DNA of 64,000 bases from positions 1 through 64,000 of the forward strand of contig CP012158.1 in the NCBI GenBank assembly GCA_001189275.1, read 5' to 3'. The position numbers and the translations under genes are program-made. The number at the start of each line of letters is the position of its first letter. Position 1 is the stretch's first letter. This stretch comes from Pyrobaculum sp. WP30 (GTDB taxonomy: Archaea; Thermoproteota; Thermoprotei; Thermoproteales; Thermoproteaceae). Under the pieces are notes generated by a model that saw nothing but the letters and a program-made list of their open reading frames with translations, had not been told where the DNA came from and did no database searches. This document shows positions 6,277 to 13,417 of the stretch, one piece after another.

Positions 6277-6330
6277 TTCTCAGCAGGAGCTTCTCTTCAC
6301 AGCTCAGGAGACCCTTAGCTCATCAACGGC
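6277..6330 (-). ncRNA. C/D-box sRNA (candidate, strong)
   Basis: Read on the minus strand: box C TTGATGA (6326-6320), a 12-nt guide GCTAAGGGTCTC, box D' CTGA (6307-6304), a 3-nt spacer, box C' GTGAAGA (6300-6294), a 10-nt guide GAAGCTCCTG, and box D CTGA (6283-6280). Order and spacing are those of archaeal 2'-O-methylation guides. A TATA-like GTTAAAATA (6355-6346) lies about 24 bp upstream of box C. Target sites would be complementary to the two guides, with methylation opposite the fifth base upstream of D or D'. Confidence 0.75.
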
Positions 6331-6411
6331 CATATACATACATACGTATTTTAACTTACCCGCGTCTCTTTGTGAACACCGGACTTAATAAACCGGGCAA
6401 GGAAATGTGAC

Positions 6412-6585
6412 GTGTTCATCTACATGGCCGCCATATACGGTGCAGTGGTGCTGATCATGGGCGTCGTCGGAAACGAGCCGGAGCTCGTCCTACTAGGCCT
6501 AGCTATGATGCTTCTCGGCAACCTTCACAAGCTTGGGAGATTCTTGGTAAAGATGCAGAAGCGTACAATAGACGTAAAGACATAG
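6412..6585 (+). CDS. Small two-helix membrane protein
   Basis: 57-aa reading frame starting at GTG 6412, with an in-frame ATG at 6424. A TATA box TTAATA (6385-6390) is 24 bp before the GTG, favouring that leaderless start. Two hydrophobic stretches (GAVVLIMGVVG and LVLLGLAMMLLGNL) are separated by an acidic turn (NEPE), followed by a basic tail (KMQKRTIDVKT). This is a hairpin inner-membrane miniprotein. It converges with the nfeD gene. No homologue family is recognised; coding status rests on promoter spacing and protein-like composition. Confidence 0.55.
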   Translation: MFIYMAAIYGAVVLIMGVVGNEPELVLLGLAMMLLGNLHKLGRFLVKMQKRTIDVKT

Positions 6586-6641
6586 CTACCGTTAATTCAC
6601 TCAGTCTGCAGAAAGTCCAGCGCTGCTCAGGTAGTGCACAT

Positions 6642-7928
6642 CTAACACTGCGCCGGCTCCACCTTAAGCGTATCGCCTTGAACCTCGACAACGCGTACTC
6701 TACAGCCTTTCTTAATAGGGGTATCAGACACCGCCTTCCAGTACTCTCCAAATACCTTGACAAATCCCGACATGCCGGGCCCTATGTCGTCGATTGCCAC
6801 GCCCTCCATACCTCTGAGATTTGTTAAGAACTCCGATGGTGGTCTCTGTCTGTGAACCGTCACTATTTTATATATCATGAATCCGAGAAATCCTATGAGC
6901 AAAGCTATATTTATATATAAACCAAGCTGGATAAGCCACCAGTCTCTTATATATATAAGTTCACCGCTGAAGACATTCGCCGGGTAGATTGATAGGAAGC
7001 CCATAACCACCAAAACCACCCCCACGCCTGCAACTACCCCATGAGTAGCCATTCCCATCAGGACCTCTGCCATTATCAACACGGCGCCCAGTATTATGAG
7101 AGCGACGCCGAGCCACGCCGTAGGCATGAAGGTAAACATGGAAATCACTAGTATTATTATCGCGGCGACTACGGCGGCTGGGTGACCTGTCAGAAAGGCG
7201 GCAAGGAGCAGGATAAAAGCCAGAAGAGACAGAATACTTGACACCACCGGGTCGCTTAGCCACATCTGTAGAGTCTCGGTAATTGTCGGTTCCACCTTTC
7301 TTATCGCAACACCGGCGATTACCAGCTCCGTCTTCTGGTTTCTGAGCACCACGGAACTGCCGTTTATCTTCCTCAACAAGTCGTTTACGTCAACCGCCAC
7401 AACTTCGATCACTCTGTATCTCAAAGCCTCCTCGGCGCCTAGGTTGACGTTTTGAGTTATGCAAAGCCTCGCAAAGGTGCCGTTGCGTCCATACGACTTT
7501 GCAACAGTCTCGAGGTATCCTATCAAGGCGTTTAGCGTCTTAGACTCGTTTATAGGCGTCCCGCCTGCGATAGGCTGACAAGACCCAATTACTGTATGTG
7601 GAGCCATAGCCGCGATGTGCGTAGACATGAGTATGTAGGTCCCCGCAGACCAGGCGTAGCTGTAGTCCGGGTACACGTAGCCGACGACGGGCGCTTGCGA
7701 GTTACCAATCTCTTTCATGATTTGAAGCGTAGTGTCGGCCAGGCCGCCTGGCGTGTTGAGCAACAGAAGGACCAAGCCGCTGTTCTGCTCAGCTAACGCA
7801 ATCGCTCTCTGTATCTGCGACAGCGTGTAAGGCCCTATAACGCCGTTTATCTCAACTACATATACCGTGGTTACTACATAGGCGTTAGAAAAAAAGACTA
7901 GTAGAAGCAGGAGGAGGAATCTCCTCAT
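6642..7928 (-). CDS. nfeD: NfeD-family membrane serine protease
   Basis: 428-aa full-length NfeD (STOPP) protein. It has a signal peptide or TM at 1-20, a ClpP/SppA-like protease domain with Ser94 in AWSAGTYI and Lys130 in INESK as the likely Ser-Lys dyad, four or five TM helices between about 230 and 345, and a C-terminal soluble OB-fold NfeD domain. Archaeal homologues such as PH1510 cleave the C-terminus of the partner slipin. The start overlaps the slipin stop (ATGA), so the two are cotranscribed. Role: membrane protein quality control. Identification is secure. Confidence 0.93.
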   Translation of the reverse strand: MRRFLLLLLLVFFSNAYVVTTVYVVEINGVIGPYTLSQIQRAIALAEQNSGLVLLLLNTPGGLADTTLQIMKEIGNSQAPVVGYVYPDYSYAWSAGTYILMSTHIAAMAPHTVIGSCQPIAGGTPINESKTLNALIGYLETVAKSYGRNGTFARLCITQNVNLGAEEALRYRVIEVVAVDVNDLLRKINGSSVVLRNQKTELVIAGVAIRKVEPTITETLQMWLSDPVVSSILSLLAFILLLAAFLTGHPAAVVAAIIILVISMFTFMPTAWLGVALIILGAVLIMAEVLMGMATHGVVAGVGVVLVVMGFLSIYPANVFSGELIYIRDWWLIQLGLYINIALLIGFLGFMIYKIVTVHRQRPPSEFLTNLRGMEGVAIDDIGPGMSGFVKVFGEYWKAVSDTPIKKGCRVRVVEVQGDTLKVEPAQC

Positions 7929-8716
7929 TCCTTCTTCTCCCTCCTAGCCAAGGCCAAGGGCAATGCCACGTACTCCATCGTCGGCGGCGTGACTATTATG
8001 AGGTTGTGCTCCCGCGCGATCTCGATGAGCGCATCTATCATCCTGAGCTGCACCGCGGTGGGGTTCTGCGAATATCTCTCGGCTGCCTCCAGGTAGATCT
8101 TACTCGCCTCGTACTCCGCCGAGGCTAACGTGATTTTCGCGCGTCTCACCCTCTCCGCCTCGGCTTGACTCGCCATCGCGCGGAGCAGAACCTCAGGGAG
8201 CTTTATGTCCTTGATGGCGACGGCGGTCACCTTAACCCCCCACGGGGTCACGTGATCGTCCACGATAGACGCGATCTTTTTAGCGATATCGTCTCTATGC
8301 ATCAGTAAAGTATCTAGGTCAACCATGCCCACGACGTCGCGGAGCGTGGAGGCTGCGTAGATGGCGACGGCAGGTATGTGGTTCCTCACGGTCAGCGCCG
8401 TTTTTAGGGCGTCCACCACCCTCAGATAAATAGCGGCGTCTATCGTGACCTCCACGTTGTCTTTTGTCAACGCGCGTTGAGCCGGCACGTCCACAACCTC
8501 AACTCTGAGGTCGTATTTCATAATGGTGTCTATAATCGGTATGATGAACACAAGACCCGGCCCCACCACGCCTACCACCCGGCCTAGCCTAAACTTCACA
8601 GCCCTCTGGTACTCAGGAATTATGCGTATCGCAGAGGAGAGGATGGCGACGAGAATTACAACGGCGAAAAGAACCAATATGGCAAAGGCTACCTGCTCAA
8701 CCAGTTGAAGTATCAT
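7925..8716 (-). CDS. Slipin/stomatin (SPFH/Band 7) protein
   Basis: 263-aa stomatin-like membrane scaffold. An N-terminal TM hairpin region (residues 5-27) precedes the SPFH domain, which begins IIPEYQRAVKFRLGR, and an oligomerising helical region AMASQAEAERVRRAKI. It is the expected partner and substrate of the downstream NfeD protease. Two ATGs lie 6 bp apart, at 8722 and 8716. The TATA (TTATATAG on the minus strand, 8742-8735) is 23 bp before 8716, so that start is chosen. The stop overlaps the nfeD start by 4 bp. Confidence 0.93.
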   Translation of the reverse strand: MILQLVEQVAFAILVLFAVVILVAILSSAIRIIPEYQRAVKFRLGRVVGVVGPGLVFIIPIIDTIMKYDLRVEVVDVPAQRALTKDNVEVTIDAAIYLRVVDALKTALTVRNHIPAVAIYAASTLRDVVGMVDLDTLLMHRDDIAKKIASIVDDHVTPWGVKVTAVAIKDIKLPEVLLRAMASQAEAERVRRAKITLASAEYEASKIYLEAAERYSQNPTAVQLRMIDALIEIAREHNLIIVTPPTMEYVALPLALARREKKE

Positions 8717-8797
8717 GCACATTACAACAACTAACTATATAAGTTTGCGTCTAACCCACGCGGCTAAGAGATATATAGTGGCGGAGACAACCGCCTA

Positions 8798-8856
8798 GGT
8801 GAGGTGAAAACGGGGACGGTCTGAGGGAGTGATGTCAGTTCCGCGCTTCTGAAGCG
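8798..8856 (+). ncRNA. C/D-box sRNA (candidate)
   Basis: The plus strand has D' CTGA (8821-8824), a 4-nt spacer, C' GTGATGT (8829-8835), a 13-nt guide and D CTGA (8849-8852). Box C is weak (GTGAAAA, 8804-8810), followed by a 10-nt guide CGGGGACGGT. A TATA box GATATATAG (8770-8778) lies about 25 bp upstream of the predicted 5' end, and no ORF starts there. It overlaps the 3' end of the GTPase gene on the opposite strand by about 20 nt. The imperfect box C lowers confidence. Confidence 0.5.
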
Positions 8857-9635
8857 TCGTGGTTTTCCGGCGGCCGCGCCGCGTATTTCAGCTTCCCAGT
8901 TATCCAGTCTTTCAGAACCATGCGGGCGGTCTCGTCGATGTTTATCCTTCCGCCTTTTAGAAGTCTTCTCTTAGCCCTGCCGATTTCCTCCAAAGCGTGC
9001 TCCACGTCGCAGTCTATCCCATACGCCTCTCTGAGGGCGTCTGGGTTGTATGCAAGCACCCGTTTGAGCAGGGCGTAGGCGTATGGGACGGGGTCGTCCA
9101 CCGTACCTGGATCCACCAAGCCTCTTATGACGTCTAGCGCCAGGTCGCCTGTATATGCGGTCTTGACTATGCCAGGCGTGTCTAGCACCAGGAGCCAGCT
9201 TTTTGCCCGTACCAACTGTTCGCCCTTGGTCCACCCCGGCTTGGGGCTCGTGGGAGCGACGTAGCGGCCCTTGAGGTAGTTTATAATCGTAGACTTCCCG
9301 ACGTTGGGGTACCCCACCACGACGACGGTGGTAGGTATCCTAGGAGCCAACGACCTGATGGCCGTGATGAGCTTCCGCGTGCCGAGTCTATGCTTAGCGC
9401 TTATATACACAACGTCCCTGCCTAAATTGACGAAGTATGCCCGCCAGGCCTCCAAGATACCTCTCTCTACGAGATCCGCCTTGTTAAGCACCACCAACAG
9501 CCTCTTCCCCAGCCTGTCTACCGACTTCTCCACCTCTTCGTTTCTAGTGGCGAGGGGGTCCCTGGCGTCGAGAACCTCGAGCACAATTTCCCCATCTTCA
9601 ATCACTCTTCTTACGAGACGCCAATTCTCCCTCAC
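8835..9635 (-). CDS. Circularly permuted GTPase (YlqF/YawG family)
   Basis: 266-aa GTPase with permuted motif order: the NKAD G4 motif (LLVVLNKADLV, about residue 50) precedes the Walker A GYPNVGKS (about 105) and the DTPG G3 motif (about 150). Such proteins take part in ribosome assembly. GTG 9635 is chosen because TTTAAA (9655-9660) is 22.5 bp upstream, and a longer reading frame would run through the divergent ATPase D gene. A helical C-terminal domain follows the G domain. Shares its TATA box with atpD. Family assignment is secure; the ribosomal target is unknown. Confidence 0.88.
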   Translation of the reverse strand: MRENWRLVRRVIEDGEIVLEVLDARDPLATRNEEVEKSVDRLGKRLLVVLNKADLVERGILEAWRAYFVNLGRDVVYISAKHRLGTRKLITAIRSLAPRIPTTVVVVGYPNVGKSTIINYLKGRYVAPTSPKPGWTKGEQLVRAKSWLLVLDTPGIVKTAYTGDLALDVIRGLVDPGTVDDPVPYAYALLKRVLAYNPDALREAYGIDCDVEHALEEIGRAKRRLLKGGRINIDETARMVLKDWITGKLKYAARPPENHDASEARN

Positions 9636-9654
9636 GCCCAGGTCCGCGCAATAC

Positions 9655-9660
9655 TTTAAA
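9655..9660. promoter_or_regulatory. Shared palindromic TATA box (TTTAAA)
   Basis: Perfect palindrome centred 22.5 bp from the GTPase GTG (9635, minus) and 24.5 bp from the ATPase subunit D ATG (9682, plus). It is the only TATA-like element in the 46 bp between the start codons, so it should direct RNA polymerase in both directions. Confidence 0.65.
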
Positions 9661-9681
9661 AATGTGGCTGTGAAGCCATTT

Positions 9682-10281
9682 ATGTCGTTTAAGCCGCCTC
9701 CTTCGAGGCTGGAGCTGATTAGGCTGAGGAGGCAGCTTGCCCTCTTTTTGCGTATGAAGAAGACGCTTGAAGATGCCCGGAACTCTACTATCCAAAGGAT
9801 AAGAGCCTTGGTGGCCGACTTAGAGCGGCTGAGGCGCGAGATAGCTGACGGATTTGTAGAGGTGGCGGACAACTTCAAAATCGCCGTGGCTAAGTCCGGC
9901 ATAGACAAGATTGAAAACATAGCGGAGCTGACGCCGAAGACGGTGAGGGTGGGGCTTGTAAATAGGGGGACGCATATAGGTCTAGAGGTGAGCAACTACG
10001 TAACTTACCCTACTTACAGCATTGCGACCGAAGCCGCTGAGCTCGACGTCGCGCTGGTGAAAATGCGCGAGCTTCTCACAAAGCTTATAGAGTTCGCCGA
10101 GAAGGAGACGCTCTTCTACACGCTTCTCAACAGGGTGAGGGAGTATCAACGTATGATAAACGCCATAGACTACGTCGTCATCCCCCGCATAAGAGAAAAC
10201 ATGCAATATATCCGCCTTGCACTAGAGGAGGGCGAAAGAGAGGAGTTCATAAGGAGGAAGATAATAACCTCACATATTTAA
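9682..10281 (+). CDS. atpD: A-type ATP synthase subunit D
   Basis: 199-aa central-stalk subunit D of the archaeal A1A0 ATP synthase. The N-terminus PSRLELIRLRRQLALFLRMK, a long coiled coil, and a C-terminal IPRIRENMQYIRLALEEGER motif are characteristic. ATG 9682 is fixed by the shared TATA at 9655-9660. Neighbours are subunit K, subunit C and a peripheral-stalk protein, so this is part of a dispersed ATPase gene group; catalytic A/B and the a/I subunit are not in the window. A new promoter-like TATTTAAAAACC lies across its stop codon for the next gene. Confidence 0.9.
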   Translation: MSFKPPPSRLELIRLRRQLALFLRMKKTLEDARNSTIQRIRALVADLERLRREIADGFVEVADNFKIAVAKSGIDKIENIAELTPKTVRVGLVNRGTHIGLEVSNYVTYPTYSIATEAAELDVALVKMRELLTKLIEFAEKETLFYTLLNRVREYQRMINAIDYVVIPRIRENMQYIRLALEEGEREEFIRRKIITSHI

Positions 10282-10304
10282 AAACCGGGTCTTCCACTAC
10301 TTGT

Positions 10305-10454
10305 ATGTCTATGAAAGACCTTAATGTACTTATTAAAGAGCTTATCGATAAAGAAATCGAGAAGGCCATGAATAATGTAAAAGAAGAAATAAAAGGTTTA
10401 GTAACAACAATCGATAGAAAAATAGAGGAGTTACGTCAATATTTAAAAACCTAA
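10305..10454 (+). CDS. 49-aa coiled-coil protein in the ATPase cluster
   Basis: ATG 10305 (in-frame ATG also at 10311) to TAA 10454. The sequence is almost wholly helical and charged, with heptad-like hydrophobics (VLIKELIDKEIEKAMNNVKE). A TATA box ATATTTAAAAACC (10274-10286) is 26 bp upstream, and an almost identical box at its own 3' end serves the next gene. Its position between ATPase subunits D and K suggests a mini stalk or assembly subunit, but no such family is recognised. The low GC and AAA/GAA-rich codon use differ from the neighbours. Confidence 0.6.
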   Translation: MSMKDLNVLIKELIDKEIEKAMNNVKEEIKGLVTTIDRKIEELRQYLKT

Positions 10455-10468
10455 GAAGTTAGAGGCCC

Positions 10469-10738
10469 ATGAACACAAAAGCACTACTTACAATTGCGCT
10501 GGCTGCTATGTTAACAATGGCACAGGCGCCTACCGATAAATACCTTGGAGCAGGTCTCGCAGTAGGTCTGGCAGGCCTTGGGGCAGGTGTAGGAGTGGGG
10601 CTTGCAGGCGCAGCAGCTATGTCTGCATTAGTCGAGAAGCCGCAAGAGAGAATTTGGTATTTGATTTTCTTGGCGCTTGCCGAAGCTATCGCGATATATG
10701 GCCTGCTTGTAAGCTTCTTGATTCTATTCTCAGGTTAG
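10469..10738 (+). CDS. atpK: A-type ATP synthase proteolipid subunit K (c)
   Basis: 89-aa membrane rotor subunit. A leader-like hydrophobic N-terminus (residues 4-20) precedes a glycine-rich helix (GAGLAVGLAGLGAGVGVGLA) and a second helix carrying the ion-binding carboxylate Glu72 in LALAEAIAIYGLL. This is a single-hairpin c subunit with a probable cleavable leader. TATA TATTTAAAAACC (10440-10451) is about 24 bp upstream of the ATG. It converges with the subunit C gene 6 bp downstream. Confidence 0.93.
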   Translation: MNTKALLTIALAAMLTMAQAPTDKYLGAGLAVGLAGLGAGVGVGLAGAAAMSALVEKPQERIWYLIFLALAEAIAIYGLLVSFLILFSG

Positions 10739-10744
10739 TAGTTT

Positions 10745-11773
10745 TTAGCGGGTGAGCGGCTCGAAAACTTTTCTTCTTTTTTCAGCTGGTACACCTTCTG
10801 CAAGTAGAGAGGCAACTCTCATGAGCGTCATAACCTCCGCACGCATATATTCTAAATGCGCAGCCAGTGCGCCGAGCGAAAACTCCGAAAACCTGACTGT
10901 GTATATATCGGAGAGCTTTTTCACATAGGCTGGATATATATTATCCATCGCGATTGATATGTTCTCCAGCGTCGGCGCCTCAGCCACCAAGTCCAGCAGT
11001 ATCCTCCCCCAGGGGGTGCCTTCGGCGTTTTCTAGAAACTTCGCAGGCGGGTCCTTCACCGCAGATGCCACCAGCGGCGTAGGTTTATCTACAATAAGCT
11101 CGTTCAGTTCTTCGACAAGCCCCCATATCCTCGCCCTTATTGCTATCAGGATGTTAAAGTATTCCTTGAGCTCCGTTACGAAGTCGTGGAGCGACTTGTC
11201 TTTGCTAGTTGGGGCCGTTGTGGAGAAGTCGTGAATCCACTGCCTATCTAAGAAGACGCTTATCTTCTCATCTCCGTATTTCGAGGCAAGCTCGAAGGCT
11301 TTGTAGGCGGGGTGCCTGATCTGTTTCAGTCTCTCTCCTATATCCTCTATGCTCTTGGCGCCGAGGAGACTTGCTACTACGTGTCTCCGCCTAGTGAATT
11401 CGAGCGGTTCCCATATTATGAAATCCTCTGGGTTCCTGCCGGCTTTGACGGCGATAGTTAAGTTCCTAATGTTTTCGTACTCGAAATACTTAAGCGACGA
11501 CATAATAACCGCTTTTACGTCGCTACTAGCACCTAGGAAGATGGACTTTATACGCTCCAAGTAAGCCCTCACGAGACCCTTCCTTAGGTCCTCTAGGTTT
11601 TCGCGTGTAAGTTTGTCTATGGCTATGCTGTAGGGCGTCGTCTTCAAGATGTTTAGAAACTCGTCTAGCGTGTTGGCGTAGATCAACGAGATTAATTTAT
11701 CGCGTGGAAGCTCCTTTATCCGGAGCCCCCTTACCCTAGGACCGAGGGCTGGTCTCCTAAGTACCGAGCTCAT
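10745..11773 (-). CDS. atpC: A-type ATP synthase subunit C
   Basis: 342-aa helical protein of the V/A-ATPase C (AC39/d) family, which couples the central stalk to the membrane rotor. Recognised from its repeated helical layout, for example TLDEFLNILKTTPYSIAIDK near residue 35 and YFEYENIRNLTIAVKAGRNP near 95, and from its genomic context. The start overlaps the stop of the stalk gene (ATGA), forming a two-gene operon opposite in direction to subunits D and K. Length is typical. N-terminal residues 1-20 are basic. Confidence 0.85.
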   Translation of the reverse strand: MSSVLRRPALGPRVRGLRIKELPRDKLISLIYANTLDEFLNILKTTPYSIAIDKLTRENLEDLRKGLVRAYLERIKSIFLGASSDVKAVIMSSLKYFEYENIRNLTIAVKAGRNPEDFIIWEPLEFTRRRHVVASLLGAKSIEDIGERLKQIRHPAYKAFELASKYGDEKISVFLDRQWIHDFSTTAPTSKDKSLHDFVTELKEYFNILIAIRARIWGLVEELNELIVDKPTPLVASAVKDPPAKFLENAEGTPWGRILLDLVAEAPTLENISIAMDNIYPAYVKKLSDIYTVRFSEFSLGALAAHLEYMRAEVMTLMRVASLLAEGVPAEKRRKVFEPLTR

Positions 11774-12087
11774 AAATTGAGAAGAGACAGCGCCCTCTGG
11801 ACAAGCGCCGCCCGCCTCTCCTGGTACTTCGACAGTATCTTCTGCCGCTTCTCCTCGGTCTCTTTCGCGATTTTTTCAGCCTCCTTCTTCGCGTCCTCTA
11901 TGGCCTTAGCCCTATACTCAGCCACCGCGTTGTTGACGATCTCCTCAACTCTTTTCACCACTTGTTCCGAGTACTTTCTTGACGTCTGCTCCACTCCTGC
12001 TAAAACCTGCGCCTTGACCTCGTCGGCGCTCTTTACAACTTTATCGACCTCTTCAAGTCGCTTCAGAATCTCGTCTATCTTAAGCAT
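11770..12087 (-). CDS. A-type ATPase peripheral-stalk subunit (H/E-like coiled coil)
   Basis: 105-aa, nearly entirely charged coiled coil with an alanine/lysine/glutamate-rich centre (EDAKKEAEKIAKETEEK). It matches the length of archaeal subunit H (about 105 aa) better than subunit E (about 190 aa). It is translationally coupled to subunit C. The TATA is CTTTATAAG on the minus strand, around 12115-12107. A plus-strand TATA for a predicted sRNA overlaps its start codon. Assignment to H rather than a shortened E is uncertain. Confidence 0.75.
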   Translation of the reverse strand: MLKIDEILKRLEEVDKVVKSADEVKAQVLAGVEQTSRKYSEQVVKRVEEIVNNAVAEYRAKAIEDAKKEAEKIAKETEEKRQKILSKYQERRAALVQRALSLLNL

Positions 12088-12114
12088 ATAAAGACCAAAG
12101 AAGGGATCTTATAA

Positions 12115-12171
12115 AGTTGATGAGTCCAGGACTGTCGAGACATGTGACGATAACTTCTCGCCTCTGACCCT
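12115..12171 (+). ncRNA. C/D-box sRNA (candidate)
   Basis: Box C TTGATGA (12117-12123), an imperfect D' CTGT (12132-12135), C' GTGACGA (12144-12150), a 13-nt guide TAACTTCTCGCCT and D CTGA (12164-12167). TATA ATATAAAG (12086-12093) is about 25 bp upstream of the predicted 5' end at 12115, and no ORF starts there. The first guide is short (8 nt), so only the D guide may be functional. It lies between divergent genes. Confidence 0.5.
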
Positions 12172-12205
12172 CTGGAAACGTATTAATAGGCCCGTACTTA
12201 AGACC

Positions 12206-12679
12206 GTGGTTCTCACGTTGATAGCCCTTGTACTGACAGCGCTTATTCTCGCAGTGAGCCCATTTGCGACGCCGCTTTACGCCACTGCCCCCGTTGAGGT
12301 GAGGCAGTTCGAAATAGTGGCAAGCAACTTCGCCGAGAGGTTTCTACAGATACCTCAGCCGCTTGCAACCGCGGCCGTCCTGACGTTGCTGGCGGCTACG
12401 GTATATCTCGAGTTCTTCACGAAGATGCAGGCGGGGAAGTTGCCTAAGATAATTGCCGTCCTCGCGTTGCTTTATGGGGTCCCTCTGCCGTATGTATACG
12501 TGGTTGAGGGAGGCAACGTGGTGGTTGTGCTTAGCAACTTCGCGAAATTTGTCTCCATCCCCCTTTTCGGGGTAGCTCTTCTCGTGACCGCCACTGAAGC
12601 TATTTTAACCCCGCAGAAGAGGGCGAGGGTTATTGCAGATCTTTCAATAACTGAGGAAAAGACGGAGAAGGAGGCGTGA
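12206..12679 (+). CDS. Membrane protein, unknown
   Basis: 157-aa protein starting GTG 12206, with a TATA-like TATTAATAGG (12180-12189) about 22 bp upstream. Four hydrophobic segments are visible: residues 2-22, 49-66, 78-95 and 105-128. The C-terminal tail is charged and cytoplasmic (DLSITEEKTEKEA). An extracytoplasmic loop between TM1 and TM2 carries VRQFEIVASNFAERFLQIP. Its stop overlaps the GTG of the following zinc-binding protein, so the two are coupled. No family is recognised. Confidence 0.75.
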   Translation: MVLTLIALVLTALILAVSPFATPLYATAPVEVRQFEIVASNFAERFLQIPQPLATAAVLTLLAATVYLEFFTKMQAGKLPKIIAVLALLYGVPLPYVYVVEGGNVVVVLSNFAKFVSIPLFGVALLVTATEAILTPQKRARVIADLSITEEKTEKEA

Positions 12680-12936
12680 TATATTGTTTCTTCTGCGCAC
12701 GTCCACTTACTGTGTACAACGTTGTGAAACTACGCACAGAGCTTTCGCTGGACTTATATGTATACGCCTGCAATGAATGCTTATCTAAGTATAGCGACTT
12801 CATCCTTGAGGTCGTGAAAAGAGGTGAGAAGGTGCCCTATTTTCCAAGCAGGGATCACAGGTACTCCGCTATGAATAAACCCGGTGTCGGAGGAGGTTAT
12901 TACAAGCGGCGCCACAGAAGGGGCAAAAGCCAGTAG
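12676..12936 (+). CDS. Small zinc-binding protein
   Basis: 86-aa protein starting GTG 12676, overlapping the previous stop (GTGA). Two CxxC knuckles, CFFC at residues 4-7 and CNEC near 35, can hold one zinc. A helical segment and a strongly basic tail (YYKRRHRRGKSQ) suggest nucleic-acid or ribosome binding. The final 156 bp overlap, tail to tail, the PD-(D/E)XK gene on the other strand, and both frames look genuine. Function unknown. Confidence 0.65.
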   Translation: MIYCFFCARPLTVYNVVKLRTELSLDLYVYACNECLSKYSDFILEVVKRGEKVPYFPSRDHRYSAMNKPGVGGGYYKRRHRRGKSQ

Positions 12937-13338
12937 CTTGGAGAGACATCGAGAAACCTTCTTCAAATGACTGCTTGCGACCTCGGACCACCTCCCCCCG
13001 CCGCTCCTCCACTTCTTTGCCTCCACCACGAAAACCACCTCCCTGTTCCACGCAACGACGTCGAACTCGACCCCGCCATCGCAGTCAAGTCTCAGATTAG
13101 ACGCCACGTTGAAGCCGAACTCCGCAAACACGTGCCTGATAAATACCTCGAATTCCCTCCAATATAGCCGCTTTATGTAACCCGCCACGTTTATCCCTCC
13201 CTTAAGGGCCTTGTAGAGCACGTAGCCCCGGCTGGCCGGCTCACCTGACCCAATAAACCCCAGCCTCCTCAGGCAGTCCAGCGCAGATGCATCCCCAGAA
13301 AGATACTGCCTTACCGCCGCATCTACGCCTTCACACAC
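12781..13338 (-). CDS. PD-(D/E)XK nuclease family protein
   Basis: 185-aa protein. An N-terminal helical region (1-70) precedes a restriction-like nuclease core: REFEVFIRHVFAEFGFNV, then GVEFDVVAWNREVVFVVEAK with the acidic and E-x-K residues. The closing GVPVIPAWKIGHLL helix-strand is typical of archaeal Mrr/RecB-like nucleases. A TATA-like CTTAATACTT (minus strand, about 13364-13355) lies about 22 bp upstream. Its last 156 bp overlap the convergent zinc-protein gene. Substrate unknown. Confidence 0.75.
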   Translation of the reverse strand: MCEGVDAAVRQYLSGDASALDCLRRLGFIGSGEPASRGYVLYKALKGGINVAGYIKRLYWREFEVFIRHVFAEFGFNVASNLRLDCDGGVEFDVVAWNREVVFVVEAKKWRSGGGRWSEVASSHLKKVSRCLSKLLAFAPSVAPLVITSSDTGFIHSGVPVIPAWKIGHLLTSFHDLKDEVAILR

Positions 13339-13363
13339 ATTTAAAACATAACAGGAAGTATTA

Positions 13364-13417
13364 AGTGTGATGACTTCTGCACGTTGAGGGGTGATAGAGG
13401 TCCAAAGCGCTGAGCCC
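13364..13417 (+). ncRNA. C/D-box sRNA (candidate, strong)
   Basis: Box C GTGATGA (13367-13373), a 10-nt guide CTTCTGCACG, D' TTGA (13384-13387), a 3-nt spacer, C' GTGATAG (13391-13397), a 12-nt guide AGGTCCAAAGCG and D CTGA (13410-13413). Spacings match archaeal C/D guides. TATA ATTTAAAA (13339-13346) lies 24 bp before box C, and no ORF begins at that point. The D guide predicts a target containing CGCTTTGGACCT. It sits between the divergent nuclease and oxidoreductase genes. Confidence 0.75.

What the first reader, a model, noticed from the sequence alone, without database searches (positions are those of the whole stretch)
6277..13417. Cluster of C/D-box guide RNA candidates with their own TATA boxes in gene gaps
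Within about 7 kb lie four C/D-like candidates (6277-6330 minus, 8798-8856, 12115-12171 and 13364-13417 plus). Two have near-perfect box order and spacing. All have an AT box about 24-25 bp upstream of the predicted 5' end, where no ORF starts. Several overlap neighbouring gene ends or starts, so they may also act as antisense RNAs.
Basis: partly seen in the sequence, partly recalled or inferred. Interest (0 to 1): 0.55.

Follow-up and report, generated by a model that had tools for sequence, protein, structure and literature searches.

The report
Four conserved box C/D guide RNAs
Four small gaps between genes in a heat-loving archaeon hold ordinary methylation-guide RNA genes, conserved across its relatives, two of which probably act on transfer RNAs rather than on the ribosome.

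Summary
All four candidates are box C/D sRNA genes of a Pyrobaculum genome (G000, 1,993,257 bp). A blind scan of the whole 64 kb finds three of them and nothing else; shuffled sequence gives 0.1 hits on average. The fourth has a degenerate C box and is recovered by comparison. They recur at the same places in relatives: A in 16 of 16 loci, B 16 of 16, C 15 of 16, D 13 of 16. An AT box peaks 23-28 nt upstream of the C box. Predicted targets (box +5 rule): C has two 11-bp guides to 23S rRNA U2160 and G2181. D's second guide pairs 10 bp with the tRNA-Gln(UUG) anticodon loop (U34). B's D' guide pairs 10-11 bp with tRNA-Ser (U44, the yeast Trm44 site), with 23S U1575 as rival; B's other guide also fits tRNA-Ser, strongly only in this genome. 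A's D' guide (CTAAGGGTC) is invariant, but I found no target. The antisense idea is weak: only B overlaps an ORF, because an inversion split a B/C tail-to-tail pair. This is a known class, catalogued for Pyrobaculum; the genes are new members.

The parts
6280..6326 (-). sRNA A, box C to box D; D' guide GCTAAGGGTCTC (invariant core CTAAGGGTC, no target found), D guide GAAGCTCCTG (variable)
   Evidence: sub-threshold Rfam CD-box hits at 6278-6330
6347..6354 (-). AT box TTAAAATA, 21-28 nt upstream of A's C box
   Evidence: sequence; 15 of 16 A homologues have an AT-rich stretch there
8770..8778 (+). AT box GATATATAG upstream of B
   Evidence: sequence; 12 of 14 B homologues
8799..8852 (+). sRNA B, box C (GTGAGGT, degenerate) to box D; D' guide ACGGGGACGGT, D guide CAGTTCCGCGCTT
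   Evidence: targets
8835..9680 (-). GTPase-like ORF (name from its motifs, not searched in a family library) whose 3' end overlaps B by 18 nt; part of the block inverted relative to most relatives
11770..12087 (-). ORF beside the A-type ATPase-like ORF; its start codon lies under C's AT box (divergent overlapping promoters)
12085..12093 (+). AT box CATATAAAG of C, overlapping the start codon of ORF 11770-12087
12109..12116 (.). second AT box TTATAAAG directly upstream of C's C box, read as the TATA box of the divergent ORF (inference)
   Evidence: sequence; AT peak at -8 in family C
12117..12167 (+). sRNA C, box C to box D; double guide to 23S rRNA U2160 (D') and G2181 (D) of the spliced G000 23S
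13340..13347 (+). AT box TTTAAAAC of D, next to the start codon of the divergent ORF 12781-13338
   Evidence: 11 of 13
13367..13413 (+). sRNA D, box C to box D; D guide GGTCCAAAGC pairs 10 bp with tRNA-Gln(UUG), D' guide variable

Best explanation
Each candidate is an independently transcribed box C/D sRNA gene. Transcription starts about 25 nt below an AT box, roughly at box C. The roughly 50-nt RNA folds its C/D and C'/D' boxes into kink-turns that bind L7Ae, Nop5 and fibrillarin, and each guide upstream of D or D' pairs with an RNA so that the nucleotide opposite guide position 5 is 2'-O-methylated (established mechanism of the class; not shown here). C directs methylation of U2160 and G2181 of 23S rRNA, 21 nt apart. 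D directs methylation of U34 in tRNA-Gln(UUG). B directs methylation of U44 in tRNA-Ser and perhaps G26 in the same tRNA. A carries a deeply conserved D' guide whose target I could not find. Shown: boxes, conservation, promoter-like AT peak, complementarity. Inferred: transcription, RNP assembly and methylation.
For: Blind motif scans. Guide cores conserved in synteny across Pyrobaculum and a second genus while surrounding sequence drifts: A 16 of 16, B 16 of 16 (14 by the stricter pattern), C 15 of 16, D 13 of 16. AT-box peak at -28..-23. Target matches against 30 RNAs, 7,733 nt (shuffled guides at least as good): C.D' 10.25, 4 of 150; C.D 10.25, 12 of 150; D.D 10, 4 of 150; B.D' 11, 1 of 150; B.D 11.5, 2 of 150. 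C's two 23S target segments are identical in all 8 LSUs compared. D's guide keeps 10-11 WC bp to the G000 tRNA-Gln in 9 of 13 genomes, 8-9 bp in 2 and 11 bp with G-U pairs in 1; G007 fails. B.D' on tRNA-Ser: in G009 the rival 23S site has changed, with C at the +5 nucleotide, yet the guide is unchanged.
Against: No RNA-seq is available here, so expression is not shown. No Rfam family reaches its gathering score. A.D', A.D and D.D' match the tested RNAs no better, or hardly better, than shuffled guides (87, 88 and 34 of 150 at least as good), and C.D's match is only moderately rare (12 of 150). In G001 and G002 (C.D') and G016 (C.D) another place in the LSU locus scores higher than the proposed site. 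B.D pairs well with tRNA-Ser in G000 only; 12 of 13 other guides score 7.25-7.5 with a standing G-U and a mismatch. The 23S U1575 match (9-10 bp) remains a rival for B.D'. tRNA-Ser and tRNA-Gln were read in G000 only, and the tRNA set is incomplete.
Confidence: 0.9

Rival explanations
1. The candidates act mainly as cis-antisense RNAs on the neighbouring genes.
For: B overlaps the last 18 nt of ORF 8835-9680 on the opposite strand; AT boxes of C and D share sequence with divergent gene starts.
Against: A, C and D overlap no credible ORF. B's neighbour differs: in most relatives B faces C, not the GTPase-like ORF. The conserved parts are the guides, not the overlap.
Confidence: 0.05
2. B's D' guide acts on 23S rRNA U1575 rather than on tRNA-Ser.
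For: 9 WC pairs in G000 and 10 in G004 and G005 at CCCGTCCCCG; site identical in 7 of 8 LSUs.
Against: tRNA-Ser gives 10-12 pairs with most Pyrobaculum guides; in G009 the 23S site has lost the +5 U while the guide stays intact; the second guide's best match is also tRNA-Ser.
Confidence: 0.3
3. The box patterns are chance matches in AT-rich gaps.
For: B is not found by the generic scan; no Rfam hit at gathering score.
Against: 0.1 hits expected against 3 seen; guide cores conserved in 13-16 of 16 loci.
Confidence: 0.02

Closest known systems
Pyrobaculum box C/D sRNA families (Lui et al. 2018, 110 families in six species; paper not held; known through PMC7994747 passages)
   Same: Genus, box order, guides to rRNA and tRNA, synteny, orphan guides
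   Different: Family numbers could not be matched; as reported in PMC7994747, tRNA-targeting sRNAs use one guide only, whereas B's two guides may both fit tRNA-Ser
Box C/D sRNAs of P. calidifontis (88) and T. tenax (52) from RNA-Seq (Dennis et al. 2015, PMC4644070; counts from PMC7994747)
   Different: Their sRNA lists are in supplements that I could not open
Archaeal pre-tRNA-Trp intron box C/D guide (Cm34, Um39; PMC6313347 passages)
   Same: Box C/D-guided methylation of an anticodon wobble position
   Different: D acts in trans, on tRNA-Gln U34
Yeast Trm44, the protein enzyme for Um44 of tRNA-Ser (PMC9957541 passage)
   Same: Same predicted nucleotide in tRNA-Ser
   Different: Protein enzyme there, RNA guide here

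Membership tests
Archaeal box C/D sRNA | Boxes C (RUGAUGA), D', C', D (CUGA) in order with guides of about 10-13 nt | tested here: met
   A, C, D by blind scan; B with a degenerate C box
Archaeal box C/D sRNA (B, C, D) | At least one guide complementary to rRNA or tRNA with a paired +5 nucleotide | tested here: met
Archaeal box C/D sRNA (A) | Guide complementarity to rRNA or tRNA | tested here: inconclusive
   No match above shuffles in an incomplete tRNA set; no clear ncRNA site in the genome pattern search
Archaeal box C/D sRNA | Conservation of boxes and guides in related genomes | tested here: met
   13-16 of 16 loci
Archaeal box C/D sRNA | Stable 45-60-nt RNA bound by L7Ae, Nop5 and fibrillarin | not testable with these tools
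   No expression or protein-binding data
Rfam CD-box families (sR3, sR1 and others) | Score at or above the gathering threshold | tested here: not met
   0 hits; best 22.2 bits against 41 for sR3
cis-antisense RNA | Conserved overlap with the opposite strand of a gene | tested here: not met
   Only B overlaps an ORF, and its neighbour differs in most relatives

The most novel reading that the evidence does not exclude
B is a double guide for a single tRNA: both guides act on tRNA-Ser, placing Um44 (made by the protein Trm44 in yeast) and a methyl at G26. Nearby, A keeps an invariant guide in 16 genomes of two genera for an RNA that is neither rRNA nor a tRNA tested here.
Probability: 0.3. Interest if true: 0.5.

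Novelty: new member of a known kind. Interest (0 to 1): 0.3.

Why it matters
It adds four guide genes with predicted targets to a genome, and offers two testable points: RNA-guided methylation of tRNA-Ser U44, a site served by a protein enzyme in yeast, and a guide kept invariant in 16 genomes without a target found here. It also shows how an inversion between two tail-to-tail sRNA genes creates an apparent antisense overlap.

Tried and rejected
Antisense role: rejected as above. A.D' as a tRNA position-39 guide with an intron at 37/38: the pattern search over 10 genomes gave one hit, in G006 only, which I did not read further. A.D' on tRNA-Lys C32: 10 pairs with 3 G-U in the unspliced gene, and worse when I spliced the tRNA by eye (no call). 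A.D' genome-wide with one mismatch: 15 places including itself, against 6 for the reversed control; ARAGORN on 5 of these 15 loci found no tRNA. A looser A.D' pattern with G-U pairs in the G000 loci then held: no site in the sense strand of a tRNA that I could recognise. D.D target first sought as a 12-mer with one mismatch and as a tRNA with a short intron: missed, because the tRNA-Gln match is 10 bp and the gene has an intron in its T arm; found. first gave 23S U1575 for B.D'; one search scanned tRNA loci in genome orientation only, an error mended. A 10-bp match of B.D at genome 725187 lies in what looks like a 16S intron and was dropped. Rows dropped: G017 and G018 had the marker gene but were not fetched; G013 had no match. 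B homologues of G014 and G015 (C box not fitting the pattern) are but not in the counts.

Full report
Setting. The window is C1:1-64000 of a single-contig genome of 1,993,257 bp. Its nearest named relatives are Pyrobaculum. A marker ORF (10745-11773 minus) has matches in 18 of 19 genomes of the family, the window's own included. I fetched stretches around it from 15 of the 17 other genomes with a match; with the window this gives 16 loci. Rfam and ARAGORN find nothing in the window at standard thresholds; at E up to 10, A draws sub-threshold hits to several CD-box families (best 22.2 bits) and C one (16.4 bits).

Is it there? Yes. A blind C-D'-C'-D scan at penalty <=3 finds A and D alone in 64 kb, both strands, and nothing in 20 first-order Markov shuffles. 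At penalty <=4 it finds A, C and D alone, against a mean of 0.1 in 20 shuffles. B has a C box of GTGAGGT and is missed, but its guides recur in 16 of 16 loci.

Conservation. The D' guide core CTAAGGGTC of A is unchanged in 16 of 16 loci, including five of a second genus. B's D' core GGGGACGG is unchanged in 15 of 16 (G014 reads GGAGACGG); its D core is TTCCGCGC in the Pyrobaculum loci and varies at its first bases in the other genus. C is in 15 of 16 (none seen in G010), D in 13 of 16. A's D guide and D's D' guide vary freely.

Promoters. Over 58 homologues (A 16, B 14, C 15, D 13) the AT content peaks at -28..-23 relative to box C (0.87 against 0.55 upstream), and 51 of 58 have an AT-rich heptamer in -40..-22 against a mean of 41% in four upstream windows. 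C and D show a second AT peak at about -8. I read it as the TATA box of the divergent gene, so each gene's AT box lies at the other's start (inference). A review reports TATA-like motifs for only 20% of archaeal C/D genes (PMC7994747, section 9), so these four are of the minority type.

Targets. I removed introns from G000 16S and 23S by alignment to relatives and collected tRNA loci by Rfam and by pattern. The tRNA set is incomplete. With the +5 rule: C.D' pairs 11 bp (1 G-U) with 23S U2160 and C.D 11 bp (1 G-U) with G2181, which align to E. coli 2035 and 2056. D.D pairs 10 WC bp with GCTTTGGACC, the anticodon loop of tRNA-Gln(UUG), placing U34 at +5. The tRNA gene at 1,149 kb has an apparent D-loop intron and a T-arm intron (my reading). 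B.D' pairs 11 bp with tRNA-Ser(GCU) and 10 with tRNA-Ser(GGA), placing U44; B.D pairs 13 bp (2 G-U) with tRNA-Ser(GGA), placing G26 (tRNA numbering by hand). Against 150 shuffled guides each, the numbers at least as good are: B.D' 1, B.D 2, C.D' 4, D.D 4, C.D 12, D.D' 34, A.D' 87, A.D 88.

Cross-checks. C's 23S segments are kept in all 8 LSUs compared; its guides hit the same sites in most, though in G001 and G002 (D') and G016 (D) another place in the locus scores higher. In G009 the 23S site that rivals tRNA-Ser for B.D' has changed, its +5 U being C, while B's guide is intact and pairs 12 bp with the G000 tRNA-Ser(GCU). That favours tRNA-Ser, but it is one genome, and G009's own tRNA-Ser was not read. 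B.D is weaker elsewhere: 7.25-7.5 in 12 of the 13 other guides tested, 9.75 in G011, so the G26 site is tentative.

Neighbourhood. In most relatives B and C stand tail to tail between the stomatin-like ORF and the ATPase-like ORFs; in G002 and G004 their D boxes touch as CTGATCAG. In G000 and its nearest relative G008 the block from the GTPase-like ORF to ORF 11770-12087 is inverted, so B now faces the GTPase-like ORF and C faces ORF 12206. G015, of the other genus, also has B and C apart, with the ATPase ORFs between them, while its relatives G014, G016 and G012 do not, so the break between B and C appears to have happened twice. Names of these ORFs come from their sequence, not from a family search.

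Known or new? Box C/D sRNAs of Pyrobaculum are well catalogued: 526 in 110 families of six species (Lui 2018, as cited in PMC7994747), 88 in P. calidifontis (same), and 83 predicted in P. oguniense (PMC3558965, passages). Homologues of A-D occur in genomes that look like those species by size (G006 has the 2,436,033 bp of P. oguniense; other sizes recalled) and are very likely among those families; I could not open the lists. PMC7994747 says that tRNA-targeting sRNAs in the genus use one guide, which D fits and B may not. A search for Um44 in archaea (24 papers hold the words, 15 listed; passages of one read; no occurrence in the review PMC6313347) showed me no archaeal case, but this is no proof that none is in print. 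Papers seen: PMC7994747 passages and section 9; PMC4644070 abstract and sections 7 and 9; PMC6313347, PMC9957541 and PMC3558965 passages; the rest as listings.

Noticed in passing
window 8799-8852 and 12117-12167; L030, L031, L025, L034: B and C form a convergent pair in most relatives; their junction was broken by inversion in G000/G008 and apparently independently in G015.
   Followed up: partly
L001, L059 (G000 rRNA): 16S and 23S rRNA genes of G000 carry large insertions that look like introns: 748 and 663 nt in 16S, 663 and 614 nt in 23S.
   Followed up: no
L094 1440-1620 (minus), L051, L056: tRNA-Gln(UUG) and other tRNA genes of G000 have introns in the D or T arm, which tRNA finders miss.
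   Followed up: no
window 12085-12116 and 13336-13366: The AT boxes of sRNAs C and D overlap or abut the start codons of divergent genes, and a second AT box lies at the sRNA start, suggesting overlapping face-to-face promoters.
   Followed up: partly
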